Source: a virus. From it: DNA of 40,688 nt. Below, one piece after another: positions 497 to 12,495 of this stretch. The first letter of the stretch is position 1. Each line of letters starts with the position of its first letter. The position numbers and the translations under genes were made by a program. The notes below the pieces were generated by a model. It was given only the letters and a program-made list of their open reading frames with translations, ran no database searches and was not told the DNA's origin. The stretch lies in IMG/VR virus record IMGVR_UViG_3300022752_000155, positions 1-40,688 of that record, one strand, 5' to 3'.

Positions 497-1114
497 ATGG
501 GATTACCAAAGAAATTAACAGAAATGCAAATGAAATTTGCATATGAAATAGTAACTAACGAAGGCAGAAAAACTGCAACTGAATGTGCTATTGATGCAGG
601 TTATGAAAAAGACTGTGCTGTTGTTACGGCTAGCAAATTACAAAACCCAAAATTATATCCATTAGTTGTTCAATACATTGGAGAACTTAGAGCTGAATAC
701 CAAAAGAAATATGATGTTACATTTGAACGCCATATAACAGAACTTGCCAAACTTAGAGATGAATCAAGAAATAAAGGTGCATGGTCAGCAGCCATCAATG
801 CTGAGGTTGCAAGAGGTAAAGCCGCAGGATTGTATATTGAACAGAAAATTATACGAACAGGTAAGTTAGAAGATTTATCAGCTGATGAATTAGAAAATAG
901 ATTAAAAGAAATTATGGAAGATTACAAACCACTTCTTGAGGGTGTTGAAGTTAAAGATCTTGAGGAAGATGTTAAGTCTAGACAGAAAAAAATTAGACTT
1001 GGTAAACCTCAACAACCCAAAAAGAAGGATGTGATGGAAGTTAACTATTCGTCTTCGTCCTCATCTTCATCATCAGACCAGTCTTCCGGTCCATCAGAAT
1101 CAGAATCACACTGA
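497..1114 (+). CDS. terS: Terminase small subunit
   Basis: DNA-recognition subunit of the packaging motor. The N-terminus (LTEMQMKFAYEIVTNEGRKTATECAIDAGY as consecutive helices, about residues 7-36) is the helix-turn-helix of the Terminase_2 type, followed by ASKLQNPK and a helical central oligomerisation region (residues 60-110). Length (205 aa) suits the family. The C-terminus is odd: a lysine-rich stretch and then an almost pure serine tract with SDQSSGPSESESH, and these last 23 codons lie antisense to the acidic C-terminus of the convergent 58-aa gene. The real end of the folded protein is probably near residue 180. The large subunit is not in the window. Start: the first ATG, preceded by no clear ribosome-binding site. 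Confidence 0.85.
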   Translation: MGLPKKLTEMQMKFAYEIVTNEGRKTATECAIDAGYEKDCAVVTASKLQNPKLYPLVVQYIGELRAEYQKKYDVTFERHITELAKLRDESRNKGAWSAAINAEVARGKAAGLYIEQKIIRTGKLEDLSADELENRLKEIMEDYKPLLEGVEVKDLEEDVKSRQKKIRLGKPQQPKKKDVMEVNYSSSSSSSSSDQSSGPSESESH

Positions 1115-1221
1115 CATTGATTGTCTTCTAGATCTTGAGCTTTATCTCTAAGGATATCAATATCTTCTTGAATTCTATCCATAATGTCTTGAATAGACTC
1201 AGTTTTTTTCTTCTTTGCCAT
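1045..1221 (-). CDS. Acidic 58-aa microprotein antisense to the terS 3' end
   Basis: Begins MAKKKKTES, continues as a charged amphipathic helix (residues 9-34, heptad-like IQDIMDRIQEDIDIL), then a CQC pair and an Asp/Glu tail ending SDDEDEDEDE. The start overlaps the end of the 89-aa gene by 23 bases, as is usual here, and the stop lies inside terS on the other strand. The basic head and acidic tail look like a real protein and would suit a DNA-mimic or protein-binding factor, but no family is recognised. The 70-bp convergent overlap explains why the terS frame ends in serine: the GAT/GAA/GAC-rich strand reads as serine codons in antisense. Confidence 0.65.
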   Translation of the reverse strand: MAKKKKTESIQDIMDRIQEDIDILRDKAQDLEDNQCQCDSDSDGPEDWSDDEDEDEDE

Positions 1222-1468
1222 TGATTTTCTCCATTGTTTTGATGTTATTTGCTGGAATTACAGTTCTATCTCCAAATGTAATTTCGCCTAGATTGTCTAT
1301 CTCATAGCTAGAAAATATCCAAACATAATCTTTAGTCTTTCTATAAATAAAACCAATTGAAATACAATGACTTACGTCCATACGATCAAATTCTACATCT
1401 GTAGCCCAACCTGAATCGCTACAAATATCTTCCCATTCTATTCTGAATAACTCGTATTTGAACTTCAT
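1199..1468 (-). CDS. Conserved-type small phage protein (89 aa)
   Basis: Pattern IEWEDICSDSGW near the N-terminus, HCISIGFIYR in the middle, then WIFSSYEID and GDRTVIPANNIKTM near the C-terminus. This layout of an IEW-D-S-GW start, an SxGF strand and a GDR..IP..I end is, from memory, that of small proteins found in many phages without assigned function. An AGGGGA ribosome-binding site sits a few bases before the ATG. It is the first gene downstream of the 250-bp motif-rich region and leads into the 58-aa gene. Confidence 0.7.
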   Translation of the reverse strand: MKFKYELFRIEWEDICSDSGWATDVEFDRMDVSHCISIGFIYRKTKDYVWIFSSYEIDNLGEITFGDRTVIPANNIKTMEKINGKEEKN

Positions 1469-1530
1469 TCCCCTATATAGAGTTATTCTATATCTTTTGA
1501 AATATAATTACGCCAAAAGTTTTAAAAAAT

Positions 1531-1609
1531 CTGTCAACTTTGTCAAATATACATATTATCCTTATATACCAATGATTCTGGCTTGACAGTTTCTTGACAG
1601 AGTTGACAG
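1531..1609. repeat. Inverted 16-bp repeat with direct TTGACAG repeats
   Basis: CTGTCAACTTTGTCAA (1531-1546) is the reverse complement, with one mismatch, of TTGACAGAGTTGACAG (1594-1609); 47 AT-rich bases lie between. TTGACAG is also present as direct copies at 1583, 1594 and 1603. Each arm holds two copies, so it looks like two paired operator half-site clusters or a large cruciform. Confidence 0.6.
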
Positions 1610-1632
1610 TTTTGAAAAGGAAGTCATATAAA
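1603..1632 (+). promoter_or_regulatory. Candidate sigma70-type promoter
   Basis: TTGACA (1603-1608), 18-base spacer, TATAAA (1627-1632). Nothing on the plus strand downstream is a recognisable gene, so a transcript from here would be a small RNA or antisense to the exonuclease gene. It overlaps the repeat cluster, so the -35 match may be a by-product of the repeats. Confidence 0.3.
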
Positions 1633-1695
1633 TCAATGGGTTATTTGGTTTCAAATCTGTCAAGTCGCAAAAACACTGCATAAATGCTCATTTTT

Positions 1696-1717
1696 ATTGT
1701 GGCAAAATTGTGGCAAA
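1696..1717. repeat. 11-bp tandem repeat beside the exonuclease stop
   Basis: ATTGTGGCAAA occurs twice back to back, followed by ATTATG. On the minus strand it lies just past the TAA of the exonuclease gene. Tandem 11-bp (about one helical turn) copies are typical of protein-binding arm sites; no integrase gene is seen in the window. Confidence 0.55.
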
Positions 1718-1718
1718 A

Positions 1719-2402
1719 TTATGATTTATTTGTGTTTTGATAGTATTTGTCCACCCTCTCAAGCCATTTCCACTTGTATTCACGAAATTGTGAACCATTA
1801 ATTATAAATCTTTGGAAGAAATTATCTGGTGTAACCATCAGTATAACGCCTTGTTCTATATTAGTTCTATGTACATAATCATGAGCTGTCGCATACGCCG
1901 CTAGCTGCAACTTATAATCTTCTATCCACTCGTCTTTTTTTGGCTTATTTGACTGTTTAAAGTCCACAATACTGTCTCTACCTTGATATATTCCACACAG
2001 ATCAGTAGCTCCTGCATATAGGCCTGGATAATGTAATACAACTTCACTTCCCCATATTTCATGCAAATCAGGTAAACCCTTGTCTATTATCGTTTTAGCC
2101 ATGCTCTCAGCCTCTCGCCCCTCGCTGCTCAGGTCTAGTAGCCCGCCACCATTGATATGATGTTCTAAATACGTGTGCATTGCAGTGCCACGTTTTGCCG
2201 CTTGATTCTTAATTTCATCTGCTTTAGAATCTCCGACCTTTAATTTCCATTTAGCTAAAGATTCTCGCTTCTCGTCGCTCGCTGTAGCAGCTAGAATTGT
2301 GGTCACAGAAGGGAGCTTCTCGTCTCCAACCTCATAGTGCCTTTCATCCTTAATCAAAGATTTAACAGAACTTGGGTACTCGTATAATCTATTCCATTTC
2401 AT
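1719..2402 (-). CDS. PD-(D/E)XK exonuclease (Cas4/MGME1-like)
   Basis: Has the layout of phage exonucleases related to RecB, Cas4 and MGME1: LPSVTTILAAT near the N-terminus, AAKRGTAMHTYLEHHI (about residues 68-83), WGSEVVLHYPGLYAGATDL with the first catalytic acidic residues, IVDFKQS giving the D-x-K, and DYKLQLAAYATA as the Q/Y helix. It would resect or process DNA ends in recombination and replication. Its ATG overlaps the stop of the LAGLIDADG gene (2399-2402), so the homing gene is translationally coupled to it and not inserted within it. Confidence 0.78.
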   Translation of the reverse strand: MKWNRLYEYPSSVKSLIKDERHYEVGDEKLPSVTTILAATASDEKRESLAKWKLKVGDSKADEIKNQAAKRGTAMHTYLEHHINGGGLLDLSSEGREAESMAKTIIDKGLPDLHEIWGSEVVLHYPGLYAGATDLCGIYQGRDSIVDFKQSNKPKKDEWIEDYKLQLAAYATAHDYVHRTNIEQGVILMVTPDNFFQRFIINGSQFREYKWKWLERVDKYYQNTNKS

Positions 2403-3660: not shown

Positions 3661-3833
3661 TAATTTACACTTTTTATTTGTTCAAGATCATTGATTACAT
3701 CATCTGTAATTTCAACTTCACCTTGATTATGACAATACTCACAATCGATCGGTACTTTTTTTCTATCATCATGATTAAATGAATAAACAAATCCATTGCC
3801 ATGACATTTAGGACAAATAATACTACCCTGCAT
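3660..3833 (-). CDS. DnaJ-type zinc-finger peptide (57 aa)
   Basis: CPKCHGNGF (residues 8-16) and CEYCHNQGEV (31-40) form a four-cysteine zinc site of the DnaJ cysteine-rich kind (CxxCxGxG). The frame extends further upstream, but GAGGAG lies seven bases before the ATG at 3833, which fixes the start at MQGSIICPKC. There is no J domain. Single-repeat versions are common in phages and probably bind protein or nucleic acid. Confidence 0.65.
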   Translation of the reverse strand: MQGSIICPKCHGNGFVYSFNHDDRKKVPIDCEYCHNQGEVEITDDVINDLEQIKSVN

Positions 3834-4149
3834 AAACAATCTCCTCATTTTTAACATTCCAAACAATGCCTGATTTTTTTAATTTTTTTAATCGAATCAA
3901 TTCACATACTTTTTTAGATAAGTAATCAGCATCAAAACCTGCAAATTCACAGGCTCTTTTAAAATTACCACTATTGTATATAAACCAATTTTGTGCACTT
4001 TCTTTTATTCTATGAGGCATTGCTTTACTTTCAATGTTTGATAGAGCATCATAAATAGCCTGACAAATTACTGCGCGCCAAAGTTTCTTTTCAGCTGAAT
4101 AATCTCCAGAATCGCTATAAGTTGTATATTTATTTGCTATAGCTTCCAT
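3823..4149 (-). CDS. Conserved-type phage protein (108 aa)
   Basis: Characteristic string YSAEKKLWRAVICQAIYDAL (residues 18-37), then ESAQNWFI and FKRACEFAGFDADYL. From memory this arrangement, an AExxLWxAVI helix followed by a W-F helix and an AG.D.. helix, recurs in phage proteins of unknown function and resembles a helix-turn-helix regulator. It overlaps the ribbon-helix-helix gene by 20 bases and the zinc-finger gene by 11. Confidence 0.7.
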   Translation of the reverse strand: MEAIANKYTTYSDSGDYSAEKKLWRAVICQAIYDALSNIESKAMPHRIKESAQNWFIYNSGNFKRACEFAGFDADYLSKKVCELIRLKKLKKSGIVWNVKNEEIVYAG

Positions 4150-4303
4150 TTAACTTTCTCACTTTCTCATTTACTAACATTTTAACTATTTGGCTACGAC
4201 TTAATTTTAAATCATCATTGACCATTTTAGTTTGTAGTTTAGTAAGTTTTGCGTAAGTGTCATTATCGACAGTTACATTTTTATATTTACTAAAGTCAGT
4301 CAT
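4130..4303 (-). CDS. Ribbon-helix-helix DNA-binding protein (57 aa)
   Basis: A short strand (KYKNVTVDNDTY, residues 6-17), a first helix (AKLTKLQTKMV) and a second helix beginning LSRSQIVKMLVNEKV give the Arc/CopG ribbon-helix-helix plan. AAAGG precedes the ATG at 4303. It is the first gene after the 4331-4366 promoter, so it may regulate itself and perhaps the other TTGACA-type sites. It fills most of what otherwise looks like a gene-free stretch. Confidence 0.68.
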   Translation of the reverse strand: MTDFSKYKNVTVDNDTYAKLTKLQTKMVNDDLKLSRSQIVKMLVNEKVRKLNGSYSK

Positions 4304-8457: not shown

Positions 8458-8673
8458 TCATTCTTTGTAATCTCTTTCCATTATCATTTCTATATAATGA
8501 ATTGCTTTTAAAAGATCTTGCTTTTTACCTTTGTCTTGATGCCTGCAAATATATTTAATAGCGTTTCCTTCTGCAAACAGTATCTTATTTTCATTAATAA
8601 AGATAGAAGGTTGTATTTTATATTTTTTATAATGTTTGCCACCAATTTGTTTAAAAAACACATCATTACTCAT
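8458..8673 (-). CDS. DUF3310 family protein (71 aa)
   Basis: Carries the DUF3310 signature: GGKHYKKYKIQPSIFI, then EGNAIKYICRHQDKGKKQDLLKAIHYIEMI. Members are common in phages, often beside nucleotide-metabolism or replication genes; an enzymatic role is not established. It begins in an ATGA overlap with the helicase gene, with GGAG in the helicase 3' end as its ribosome-binding site. Confidence 0.85.
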   Translation of the reverse strand: MSNDVFFKQIGGKHYKKYKIQPSIFINENKILFAEGNAIKYICRHQDKGKKQDLLKAIHYIEMIMERDYKE

Positions 8674-10199
8674 ATTGGGTCTCCTACGCTATAGTTATAT
8701 TCTTCTGTTGGTTGCATGATATATAAGTTCTCCTTTGTTCTGGTTACACCTACAAAAAACAATCTGTGTTCTGGATCAGGATTTCTTCTTGCTGATTCGT
8801 ATATGACTCTTTCTAAATCAGTAAACAAAACAACATTGTCGCATTCTTCACCTTTCACGCTGTGTATTGTAGATACTTTAATTCTTGGTTTATCAAAAAG
8901 ATTATCTCCGTTTGCTATTAATGATTTCATATATAATTTACTTTCTTCTGGAATGTTTAACTGTTGCCAACTTCCAAATATTTCTAATCCATGATCCATT
9001 CTAAGATCATCAAGATCTACATAATTTACATTCTCTAATGATTTACCTTCTGAAAAACCTCTTTTAACATGTTTAAGTTTATAACTTAAATATTCATAAA
9101 TTAATTTTGCTTCATCTCCACCAACAGAAGCTCCTTCATTTAATCTTACCCAAATTCTATAAGCTTCTAATAATTGATTTGGCAATAAGTCATTGATTTT
9201 ACTATCAAATCTTAGGTTTAAAGAAGTTAAATAATCCCTTATTGGATATAACATTTTGTTAGTTCTAGCTAATATCATCCAGTTTCCTGAATTAAAATTT
9301 ATGTTATCCATTGTTTGATTATAAAATACTTTACCTTCTGCATCTCTTGGTTTCCAATCTTTAACCATTCGATTGTTAATATGTTCTAAAATACTTAAAG
9401 CTTCTTTGTGAACTGCTCTAGGAACCCTTCTTGATTCTATTCTTGGATCTTTTTCACCTTGTAAATTTATAAATATATTTTCATCCGCACCCTGAAAAGT
9501 ATATATGGTTTGATCGTCATCCCCTGCAATGTAAGATCTTTCACATTTTGATTCAATGTAAAAGAACATATCCCATTGCAGAGGATTCAGATCTTGTGCT
9601 TCATCTAGAAAGACAGCGTTGAGTGGGGGACACTTATCTTTCTCGACAAACTGTTTAATCATATCGGAATATTCAATCATTCCTGTTTGTTCTTTATATG
9701 ATTTTAAATCGGCATCAATTTGTTCTGTTAACCATATATCAATAGAATGTTGCAAATCTAATTCTATGGCTGCATCAACAATAGGAATTTTTTTAGCTCT
9801 AGCATATTCAATAATTTTCATGTGGTGATTTTTATATTGAGGAATACCAGAATCATTTACATATGATTCAAAAGACATGTCTCTACATATTTGTGAAAAG
9901 TTTTTAAATGCTTTCCATTTAGAATCTTTTAACAATCGTGTATTTGTATCTATATTTAATTGTCTTGTGCCTAAAGAATGCATTGTAGATATGTAAGGAA
10001 AATTCTTTTTAATATCATAAGTTGGAAATAAATTTTCTATTCTTTTCTTAGCCTCAGTCGTTGCAGCATTACTAAATGTAATGTATGCAATTTTAATTGT
10101 AGGCGTTTTATATTCTTCTATTTCTTTTCTTAAATAGTGATTAGTCAAATGATATGTTTTACCTGTTCCAGGAGGCCCTGGAATAATTATTCTTTTCAT
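8670..10199 (-). CDS. UvrD/Rep-type superfamily 1 DNA helicase
   Basis: ATP-driven 3'-5' helicase. Motif I GPPGTGKT (8-15), motif Ia with ITFSNAATTEA, motif II LDEAQD (198-203), motif III GDDDQTIYTFQGAD (226-239), motif V STIHSVKGEE (443-452) and motif VI FVGVTRTKENLYI (482-494). At 509 aa it is shorter than UvrD, with reduced 1B/2B insertions. Upstream it overlaps the primase by ATGA, so primase, helicase and polymerase form one co-translated replication unit. Confidence 0.94.
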   Translation of the reverse strand: MKRIIIPGPPGTGKTYHLTNHYLRKEIEEYKTPTIKIAYITFSNAATTEAKKRIENLFPTYDIKKNFPYISTMHSLGTRQLNIDTNTRLLKDSKWKAFKNFSQICRDMSFESYVNDSGIPQYKNHHMKIIEYARAKKIPIVDAAIELDLQHSIDIWLTEQIDADLKSYKEQTGMIEYSDMIKQFVEKDKCPPLNAVFLDEAQDLNPLQWDMFFYIESKCERSYIAGDDDQTIYTFQGADENIFINLQGEKDPRIESRRVPRAVHKEALSILEHINNRMVKDWKPRDAEGKVFYNQTMDNINFNSGNWMILARTNKMLYPIRDYLTSLNLRFDSKINDLLPNQLLEAYRIWVRLNEGASVGGDEAKLIYEYLSYKLKHVKRGFSEGKSLENVNYVDLDDLRMDHGLEIFGSWQQLNIPEESKLYMKSLIANGDNLFDKPRIKVSTIHSVKGEECDNVVLFTDLERVIYESARRNPDPEHRLFFVGVTRTKENLYIMQPTEEYNYSVGDPI

Positions 10200-11710
10200 A
10201 CTAAACTAGATTCTTTCATTTTTGTTTGTCTTACATTTGGTTTATCTAATTTAATAGTTTCCATTTTCATTGTTCTAATAACTTTCTTTTCTATAAACAC
10301 TCTATCTTCTTTTGCTCCAAACAATTCACTTAATAATCTTAATGTTTTTTGTTTTTGTAATGTCCAAGACTTTGATCTTTGTAGGTACTTCCAAAAATCT
10401 GAGAATTTAAAATAAGTGATATTATCTTCTGTAAAAGGTAAACCTCTCATTATATCAGTTAATTTTTTACCAGGAGCTTTGTTTATAAAGTCAGCCAATA
10501 AATCTTTTATTTGTACATCTACTTTTGCAGAATCAGGTGCATCTAATACTTGAAGCTTTTCAAATAATTTAACTAATTGTTTTCTCCATATAATTTTACC
10601 TAATGGAAGCATTGGCTTAGATATTTGATTCATACACGCCACTGAAAATTTTTCTGGATCATGTAATGTAACATCATCTACTTCAACACTATCACCATCT
10701 ATATTAACAAAATATAATGGTGGATCTGATGGATATTTACTTATTCCTGTTATTTCTGGTGGTGGAACATCATCTCCAACCCCAAATTCTCTTTTAGAAC
10801 ATAATTTAGAATTACAAAAACTAACAATAGGTTCTAATTTACATTTATAACGATAATCTTTTTTACCTACAGATTCTATGGACCTAGTTATTTCTACATG
10901 TTGAAGTGGTGGTTTCATGTATTGTTCATTATAAACATACATCTTTGCTTGCCATTCATTTGGAAATCTTTTCTTTAAATAAACACCAATGTTATACATC
11001 ATGTCATTTCTTCCGCCTTCTGGCATTCCATCTTTTAAAATTGTTTGTAAACAAGGCGGCGCACCTTTTAATAAATCATCTGTGTTATCTGTTTCAGAAA
11101 TTTTTAAATTAAATAATTCTTTTTCAGTTAAAGAATATTGATCATAAAGTTTAAAAAAATCTTCTACCTTTAATGGTTCACCATTATCATCAAATGCAAA
11201 TCTAACTGATTTATTACTTCCATGATAAGGAACATTTAAAAAACTTCCTGTGTCTCCTCGTTCAGCTCTAATGTAATCTTGTTTAGGAAATATTTCTGCT
11301 TTCGCATATCCTAATATTCCTGCAATCTTTTTTAATCTTTCTCTCATTAAACTTGCTGCCACAAATTCTTTTGTAAATAAAAATACATGAGCTCCACCTG
11401 ATTTTGATCTAAATAAAATCATAGGAATATCTTTATCTCTAATTTTTTTAATGAAAGCTTTGTGGTCAAATGGATAAGTATCAATATCAATACATCCCCA
11501 TTTACACTTATTATCTTCTCTAATTGGAACTATTCCTAATGCTGGCTCATCACCGTTTAAATGTGCTTGCCATAATAAATCAGTTACTGGTTTTTTTATT
11601 GTAAATGATTTAGCTTCGTGTTTACCGTTTTCAGAAAATTCTTCTGTAACTTTAGTTTGGCCGTAAGCTGTTTGCAGCCCAGCAAATATCTCTTTAAATC
11701 TTTCTAACAT
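10196..11710 (-). CDS. Archaeo-eukaryotic-type primase
   Basis: The N-terminal half is an AEP primase fold: CIDIDTY with catalytic D75 and D77, SKSGGAHVFLF with H108, AEIFPKQ and GSFLNVPYHG. A helical PriCT-like region follows (about 225-285, EGGRNDMMYNIGVYLK), with cysteines C220, C290, C299 and C304 that could hold zinc. The C-terminal 190 residues are probably a helicase-loader or DNA-binding part without recognised motifs. This is the primase type of the TOTE/phage replication family, replacing a DnaG-like enzyme. Confidence 0.86.
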   Translation of the reverse strand: MLERFKEIFAGLQTAYGQTKVTEEFSENGKHEAKSFTIKKPVTDLLWQAHLNGDEPALGIVPIREDNKCKWGCIDIDTYPFDHKAFIKKIRDKDIPMILFRSKSGGAHVFLFTKEFVAASLMRERLKKIAGILGYAKAEIFPKQDYIRAERGDTGSFLNVPYHGSNKSVRFAFDDNGEPLKVEDFFKLYDQYSLTEKELFNLKISETDNTDDLLKGAPPCLQTILKDGMPEGGRNDMMYNIGVYLKKRFPNEWQAKMYVYNEQYMKPPLQHVEITRSIESVGKKDYRYKCKLEPIVSFCNSKLCSKREFGVGDDVPPPEITGISKYPSDPPLYFVNIDGDSVEVDDVTLHDPEKFSVACMNQISKPMLPLGKIIWRKQLVKLFEKLQVLDAPDSAKVDVQIKDLLADFINKAPGKKLTDIMRGLPFTEDNITYFKFSDFWKYLQRSKSWTLQKQKTLRLLSELFGAKEDRVFIEKKVIRTMKMETIKLDKPNVRQTKMKESSLV

Positions 11711-11760: not shown

Positions 11761-12495
11761 CTATTTTCCGTTAGCTAGTGATTGATAGAACTGTTTAGCT
11801 CTTTCATACACCGCTTGATCTTGCACAGGACCAACTTTTTGAATGTTGTACCCATACCATTGATTTCCTTTTCCGGAATTCAATACGGTATTTATCTTAT
11901 AAATGTGGCTAAATGATGGTGGCGTATATACACCATTTTTTCCATCTAAAGTGATGGACATCATCATAGCATTCCACTTTCTACTAATCTTACCTTGAGA
12001 TGAACTCATAGATATTAAAGCAGATTCAGTGGTACCATTATCCAAGATTAAAACAAAATGCTGACCAACAGTTAAAATATAATTACCATTTGGTAATCTA
12101 TCTTTACCCATTTGATCTTTAGTTGTTTTAGTCAATATATCCGAAGTATCTGGATAGATTTGTTCAGGTCTTCCTGATCCTGTTCCAAAGTCTGACCATT
12201 CTTGGTACTCCAGTCTATAATGGCATGGAATAACATCTATTCCTTTTGCACCATCATAAACTTTCTTTGTTACTGTGTTCAGTAACATTCCTGGCTCAGC
12301 ACCTTGCACATAAGCTTGATTTCTCTTTTGTGCTTCAGCAGAACCATTTTGTAAAAGTTTCAAGATTGGTAAAGCTAAACTTCCTTGCTTTACATTCTCA
12401 AAACCTGCGTGCGCATCTTCTTCAAACATTATTGTTGAAGGTAGAGGTGCAGCTTTCTTTGTTGCTACTTGCTTCTCGTTTCTCGCTTCTTGCAT
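11761..12495 (-). CDS. Conserved phage replication-block protein (244 aa)
   Basis: An excellent AAGGAG site precedes the ATG. The sequence has TIMFEEDAHAGFENVKQGSLALPILKLLQNGS, NTVTKKVYDGAKGIDVIPCHY and YQEWSDFGTG; this set is, from memory, a broadly distributed phage protein family without an agreed function, usually beside replication genes. The strong expression signal and position before the primase would suit an ssDNA-binding protein of gp2.5 type, but no OB-fold evidence can be seen here. Confidence 0.72.
   Translation of the reverse strand: MQEARNEKQVATKKAAPLPSTIMFEEDAHAGFENVKQGSLALPILKLLQNGSAEAQKRNQAYVQGAEPGMLLNTVTKKVYDGAKGIDVIPCHYRLEYQEWSDFGTGSGRPEQIYPDTSDILTKTTKDQMGKDRLPNGNYILTVGQHFVLILDNGTTESALISMSSSQGKISRKWNAMMMSITLDGKNGVYTPPSFSHIYKINTVLNSGKGNQWYGYNIQKVGPVQDQAVYERAKQFYQSLANGK

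What the first reader, a model, noticed from the sequence alone, without database searches (positions are those of the whole stretch)
1469..1718. TTGACA/TGTCAA cluster with a 16-bp inverted repeat in the only long non-coding region
Six heptamer-like copies in about 135 bp, 15 of 16 bases matching between the two arms, a candidate plus-strand promoter with no plus-strand gene after it, and an 11-bp tandem repeat. Options are an operator array, a replication origin or a recombination site.
Basis: seen in the sequence. Interest (0 to 1): 0.55.

Follow-up and report, generated by a model that had tools for sequence, protein, structure and literature searches.

The report
Word-swapping DNA repeat array beside terS
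In these ocean viruses of bacteria, one short non-coding stretch carries a set of repeated protein-binding words whose arrangement stays the same from virus to virus while the word itself is rewritten, which is what a virus-specific label (most likely the start site for packing its DNA) would look like.

Summary
Window 1531-1663 holds five CTGTCAA/TTGACAG sites and one TTGTCAA: one outlying site, three direct sites one helical turn apart, a conserved TATA-like core and two inverted sites. In relatives (pelagiphage-like records, isolates HTVC027P and HTVC023P, record psg01) the array keeps its place and, in the window's clade, its layout and core, but the word changes in all sites together: 24 six-base words in 75 arrays. 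A scan that leaves the word free found such arrays in 106 of 198 exo-p89 intervals and in 0 of 335 control windows. A protein-read site explains this best. TTGACA is incidental: relatives replace it and the promoter scan is at chance. I commit, at about 45%, to a packaging-start (pac) site read by the small terminase: its gene is always near, the array lies about 100 bp from it where it has moved (HTVC023P), and its DNA-binding half tracks the word better than its other part. Against: one pair with 96% identical TerS DNA-binding domains but different words; and an unknown protein (window 3823-4149) tracks the word equally well, although some genomes with arrays lack it.

The parts
1531..1537 (+). 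site, CTGTCAA (outer member of the inverted pair; TTGACAG on the - strand)
1540..1546 (+). site, TTGTCAA (inner member of the inverted pair; 9 bp from the outer one)
1563..1572 (-). core 2, TTGGTATATA on the - strand, kept in relatives while the words change
1583..1589 (+). site 3 of the direct triple, TTGACAG (CTGTCAA on the - strand)
1594..1600 (+). site 2 of the direct triple, TTGACAG
1603..1609 (+). site 1 of the direct triple, TTGACAG
1627..1636 (-). core 1, TTGATTTATA on the - strand
1657..1663 (+). outlying site, CTGTCAA, inverted relative to the triple
1696..1717 (+). two copies of ATTGTGGCAAA; belonging to the array is not shown
497..1114 (+). terS, small terminase subunit; favoured reader of the array (inferred)
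   Evidence: phrog_51 3.9e-10; weak match of residues 6-57 to the SF6 TerS DNA-binding domain 4zc3/2cmp, E 0.19/0.31; linkage and covariation
1199..1468 (-). p89, small protein of many pelagiphages, next gene after the array; not its cause
   Evidence: phrog_25889 7.3e-14
1719..2402 (-). exo, exonuclease gene on the other side of the array
   Evidence: phrog_298 2.4e-45
3823..4149 (-). 'HTH108' (my label), 108-aa protein without family match; rival reader
4130..4303 (-).
8670..11710 (-). UvrD-type helicase and AEP-type primase genes; considered and disfavoured as reader

Best explanation
SHOWN: a phage-specific array of short words, one helical turn apart (0, 9, 20 bp), beside a conserved AT-rich core with an inverted pair on the other side; the word is replaced in all sites together between phages. 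INFERRED: the words are read in double-stranded DNA by a phage-encoded DNA-binding protein, because phages of the same host strain (HTVC027P, HTVC023P) carry different words. HTH domains of a TerS ring would contact one face of the DNA at successive turns on both sides of the core; the large terminase would make its first cut there and headful packaging would follow. The word then labels the phage's own DNA, and word and TerS domain change together under pressure from co-infecting relatives or parasites (speculative).
For: Array not explained by chance. Word changes, place kept, layout and core kept within the window's clade. A terS gene lies within about 1 kb of the array in the array-bearing genomes whose neighbourhood was read past p89. 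In HTVC023P terS has moved; the array lies about 100 bp upstream of its start, not upstream of p89, and no exo relative was found in the 24 kb examined. p89 relatives in other pelagiphage families sit in tight operons with no such array. Covariation, partial rank Mantel: TerS DNA-binding half 0.34 (p 0.002) against 0.10 for its other part; whole TerS first of 18 families in the smaller set; sister contrasts -0.35/-0.44 (p 0.02/0.007). TerS with T39 and E42 goes with G at word position 5 in all such exo clusters (5 of 5 at 80% identity; others about 5.5 of 20). SPP1 pac is described as sets of direct repeats spanning the start of terS, with boxB around the cut, and boxA of SPP1 is absent from SF6, which has a different pair there (PMC4737164, passages).
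Against: G003 (CGTAGA) and G039 (TGTAACT) have 96% identical TerS DNA-binding domains but different words. HTH108 tracks the word as well (0.33, p 0.002) and differs in just that pair (43%). terS is close to the array, so linkage alone could give correlation. Nearest-neighbour prediction gave no clear winner; cluster-level mutual information is high for both TerS parts (z about 6.3 and 4.9); pol and primase also correlate in sister contrasts. The SF6 TerS DNA-binding domain bound DNA without sequence preference in vitro (PMC4737164), and specific pac binding by TerS is disputed (PMC9611059, passages). No cut, binding or virion-end data.
Confidence: 0.45

Rival explanations
1. Replication origin: the words are iterons bound by a phage initiator (primase, helicase or a small loader such as HTH108), and the AT-rich core melts. 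Type-specific origins of this sort are known.
For: Helically phased direct repeats beside an AT-rich core. The predicted C-terminal part of the primase looks like a winged helix (my reading of its elements). Primase/helicase and HTH108 differ together where the word changes (G003/G039). Sister contrasts: primase -0.60 (p 0.01, 14 pairs), pol -0.65 (p 0.003, 17 pairs).
Against: G009 and G010 share word, exo (98%) and HTH108 (100%) but have unrelated primase/helicase (25-35%), and G009 has the window's primase (96% / 87% for its two parts) with another word (assembly chimera not excluded). Partial Mantel of primase 0.01 and helicase 0.11. In the window the array is 7-10 kb from these genes. No third-position skew switch, weak evidence.
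Confidence: 0.22
2. Operator/promoter array: a phage regulator, most likely HTH108, binds the words and controls leftward transcription through p89 from a core that looks like a -10 element about 17 bp after the third site.
For: Core contains TATAAG/TATATA in line with p89. HTH108 partial correlation 0.33 (p 0.002); 69% identical between window and G008 (same word) while neighbours p68 and the RHH protein are 39% and 43%; keeps with the word in G009/G010 and changes in G003/G039. A relative lies near the array in HTVC023P.
Against: No HTH108 relative in the psg01 genome (best E 0.85), nor in the 57-kb G022 contig or in the contigs G036 and G005, all with arrays. HTH108 83-89% identical with different words (G006/G007, G013/G014) and 27-33% identical with the same word (G034/G001, G021/G007). 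p89 elsewhere has no array. No other cluster of the word in the window. sigma-70 sites at chance.
Confidence: 0.2
3. A structured RNA or DNA hairpin: the inverted arms pair and the change of word is compensatory base change.
For: Arms of 16 bases pair at 15; folding z -2.3 to -2.9.
Against: Direct triples cannot all pair; left and right spacings differ in several classes; some arrays are direct repeats only as far as scored, such as G047 and G027. No Rfam match.
Confidence: 0.04
4. Sequence drift: repeats homogenised by slippage or gene conversion without function, or a recombination site.
For: Some arrays are nearly tandem.
Against: Sites are interspersed, partly inverted and separated by a core that stays the same, which copying of repeats would not give; 0 of 335 control windows. 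No recombinase was noticed next to the array.
Confidence: 0.06

Closest known systems
pac site of Bacillus phages SPP1/SF6 (pacL-pacC-pacR; boxA, boxB, boxC)
   Same: Sets of direct repeats around a putative core; close to terS; SPP1 and SF6 differ in the repeat at the same place (PMC4737164, passages). TerS of psg01 passes the Pfam Terminase_2 cut-off.
   Different: Here the array is downstream of terS (upstream in HTVC023P), not across its start; the words run to at least 24 variants with all sites changing together; no cut or binding has been shown.
lambda cosB with its R sites, read by gpNu1 (recalled, not tested)
   Same: A few short TerS-binding sites near the TerS gene in direct and inverted orientation; related phages differ in specificity (recalled).
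   Different: No sign of fixed ends; R sites were not compared.
Iteron origins with a cognate initiator, e.g. PLE RepA/iterons and lambda O (PMC8263062 passages; PMC7466680 passages)
   Same: Repeated words next to an AT-rich stretch; in PLE the origin and the binding domain swap as a module and iterons change under attack by an origin-directed nuclease.
   Different: No initiator was found that clearly tracks the word; the words are 6-7 bp, one turn apart.

Membership tests
TerS-read packaging site (pac, SPP1 type) | lies next to or in the TerS gene | tested here: met
TerS-read packaging site (pac, SPP1 type) | repeat sets on both sides of a conserved core | tested here: met
   in the window's clade. 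That the core is the cut site is not shown
TerS-read packaging site (pac, SPP1 type) | TerS binds the repeats | tested here: inconclusive
   indirect only: covariation for; pair G003/G039 against
TerS-read packaging site (pac, SPP1 type) | first packaging cut at the site | not testable with these tools
   needs virion ends or reads
TerS-read packaging site (pac, SPP1 type) | cognate TerS of the Terminase_2 family | tested here: inconclusive
   window 16.8 bits, HTVC023P 25.7, psg01 27.9, cut-off 26.1
cos site | fixed genome ends at the site | tested here: inconclusive
   contig ends do not pile up there
iteron replication origin | phased repeats with AT-rich stretch | tested here: met
iteron replication origin | cognate initiator that tracks the repeats | tested here: inconclusive
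   primase 0.01, helicase 0.11, G009/G010 against; sister contrasts for
sigma-70 promoter on the + strand | hexamers above chance and kept in relatives | tested here: not met
operator of the ribbon-helix-helix protein | DNA-contacting strand varies with the word | tested here: not met

The most novel reading that the evidence does not exclude
The array is a phage-specific packaging label under diversifying selection: each lineage rewrites the word in every site and the HTH of its small terminase with it, so that co-infecting relatives and satellites do not have their DNA packed. This would make pelagiphages a natural series of more than 20 TerS specificities.
Probability: 0.25. Interest if true: 0.78.

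Novelty: new variant of a known kind. Interest (0 to 1): 0.6.

Why it matters
How small terminases find their own DNA is called unclear and controversial in a 2022 review (PMC9611059, passages). A set of phages with one site design and at least 24 different words, each with its own TerS, would let that be tested by swapping words and domains. Either way it gives a mark by which the site can be found in genomes of this phage group that have no laboratory system.

Tried and rejected
Reader candidates by covariation: 18 families in 23 genomes (words of G016 and G034 set by hand, those of G005, G009-G012, G018, G036 collected with a fixed core pattern), then 35 genomes (hand-set words for G016, G020, G034, G044, G045, G046; fixed pattern for G005, G009-G012, G017, G018, G036; the tandem-array clade and uncertain rows W01, G023-G027, G031, G032, G037, G047, G048, G051-G054 and L002 left out), then 77 arrays (which carries over the hand-set rows; L002, G048, L135, L453, G045, L411 dropped). 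Rejected: RHH protein (-0.14), p68 (-0.06), p78 (-0.27), exo (0.05). HTH108 was my favourite for a time; dropped to second because genomes with arrays lack it. Its predicted structure (pLDDT 76) had no structural match above Z 4.8, which proves nothing. The 38 genome pairs were picked by me.

Reversed sequences were first used as control for the layout scan; useless, because the layout is symmetric; replaced by Markov simulations (window 27 against a maximum of 25 in 12 and in 60 simulations) and by control windows. G003, G016 and G034 exceed their simulations by one point only.

Sites were picked because they resemble each other, so the within-array identity of 0.91 against 0.56 between arrays is inflated; the control windows are the proper test. 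The 198 unselected exo-p89 intervals include repeats of the same records.

GC3 skew and contig ends gave nothing. Papers: PMC12753301, PMC9611059, PMC4737164, PMC8263062, PMC9599517 and PMC7466680 were seen as passages only; others only as listings. Not in print as far as searched: 'pelagiphage'+'pac site' gave one paper (listing only, on an Oceanospirillaceae phage), 'pelagibacter phage'+'iterons' none, and a mixed query (three of five terms) listed nothing relevant among the 8 of 210 shown.

Full report
What is there. Window 1469-1718 lies between an exonuclease gene (exo, 1719-2402, -) and a small gene (p89, 1199-1468, -); the small terminase gene terS (497-1114, +) comes next. Read along the - strand, the order is: outlying TTGACAG; core 1 (CATTGATTTATATGA); CTGTCAA at 0, 9 and 20; core 2 (CATTGGTATATAAGG); TTGACAA and TTGACAG 9 bp apart; then p89.

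More than chance. CTGTCAA/TTGACAG is found five times here where 0.035 are expected, and it is the most clustered 7-mer of the window. A scan for the layout that leaves the word free gives 27 for the window against at most 25 in 72 simulated genomes.

Relatives. The window is a 40,688-base virus record. The nearest named phage by terS DNA is HTVC027P of SAR11 (75.5% over 428 bases of terS). In relatives the same place holds an array with another word: TGTAAC, TGTAGA, CGTAGA, AGTAGA, AGTCGG, AGTTGG, TGTGGA, TGTAG[GC], TGTTAC, GGTACA and others. Counted on 75 arrays there are 24 different six-base words. Of 198 unselected exo-p89 intervals, 106 reach score 23, and of 335 windows of equal length from the same contigs none does. 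The core TTGNTWTATA is found in the p89 direction in 33 of 76 array regions, 1.19 per kb against 0.064 per strand-kb in the contigs. An alignment of 17 arrays shows the core kept across eight words, with exceptions such as G020 and G034. Mixed arrays exist (G014, G050, G007: GTAGA and GTAAC side by side), so words seem to turn over site by site through tolerated intermediates.

What this implies. Sites that change together while their spacing and the core stay are read by something whose specificity changes. A hairpin is unlikely because the spacings on the two sides often differ and some arrays have only direct repeats as far as scored. The TTGACA resemblance to a -35 box is a property of this phage's word, not of the site.

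Who reads it. (a) Not p89 or its promoter as such: in the named pelagiphages of other families whose p89 neighbourhood I read, p89 sits in a tight operon and no comparable array was found (cluster scan). (b) Not the RHH protein. (c) Probably not primase/helicase: G009 and G010 share the word, exo (98%) and HTH108 (100%) while their primases and helicases are 25-35% identical, and G009's primase is nearly the window's although the words differ. G009 may be a recombinant or a chimera; its junction is not abrupt. Sister contrasts do show primase and pol moving with the word. (d) HTH108 fits several natural pairs best, above all G003/G039, where terS, p89, p68 and the RHH gene are 89-96% identical and HTH108 is 43%, but it has no detectable relative in psg01 (complete record read in two pieces), in the 57-kb contig G022, or in the contigs G036 and G005, all with arrays. 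(e) TerS is present near the array wherever the neighbourhood was read past p89. In HTVC023P terS is turned and moved and the array lies directly upstream of it. The TerS DNA-binding half tracks the word (0.34, p 0.002, 34 genomes) and the other part does not (0.10, p 0.12). Its N-terminus weakly matches the solved DNA-binding domain of SF6 TerS (E 0.19 and 0.31). The pair G003/G039 speaks against TerS, unless TerS of that lineage tolerates both GTAGA and GTAAC, which the mixed arrays suggest. About 20 families or parts were tested, so p 0.002 is about 0.04 after correction, and three other tests did not separate the candidates.

Mechanism, marked. Shown: position, layout, core, change of word, linkage to terS. 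Inferred: binding by a phage protein on one face of the helix. Proposed: a TerS ring takes up the DNA through several HTH contacts one turn apart on both sides of the core, the large terminase cuts at or near the core, and headful packaging follows. SPP1/SF6 are the closest precedent: direct repeats in sets, a cut between them, and a repeat that differs between the two phages (PMC4737164, passages). The same paper found no sequence preference of the isolated SF6 domain, so whether words matter to TerS is an open question which this family could settle. Change of iterons under attack by a nuclease that copies the initiator's specificity is documented for PLE and ICP1 (PMC8263062, passages); a similar pressure here is speculation.

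Verdict. The finding is real and more interesting than a TTGACA cluster: a layout-conserved array whose word is rewritten from phage to phage.

Noticed in passing
window 1199-1468 (p89): Relatives of this small protein (phrog_25889) are found in 41 phage records, 38 of them Pelagibacter phages of several families including a myovirus: close to a pan-pelagiphage gene of unknown function.
   Followed up: partly
window 3823-4149 (HTH108): Fast-evolving protein family with a conserved DF..VCe.AGfdP.yv..K stretch; no Pfam or PHROGs match; AlphaFold model helical with a terminal hairpin.
   Followed up: partly
G009 (L175, L176) about 21.4-22.0 kb: Mosaic record: 93-98% identical to G010 over most of the stretch up to about here, then 87% to the window across pol, helicase and primase.
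   Followed up: partly
window 8670-11710 against relatives: Primase and helicase are far more diverged (54-70% in G001/G002/G013) than their neighbour gene 11761-12495 (88-90%), as if swapped as a cassette.
   Followed up: no
window 1696-1717: The tandem ATTGTGGCAAA contains TGTGGCA, the array word of relative G046; it could be a remnant of an older word.
   Followed up: no
downstream of arrays in G023, W01, psg01 (L493), L445: A GC-rich CGCG-type element followed by a T run, striking in AT-rich genomes; in the window only GCG remains near there.
   Followed up: no
window 1045-1221: A small ORF opposite the 3' end of terS, kept in several relatives; the terS tail is Ser-rich there.
   Followed up: no
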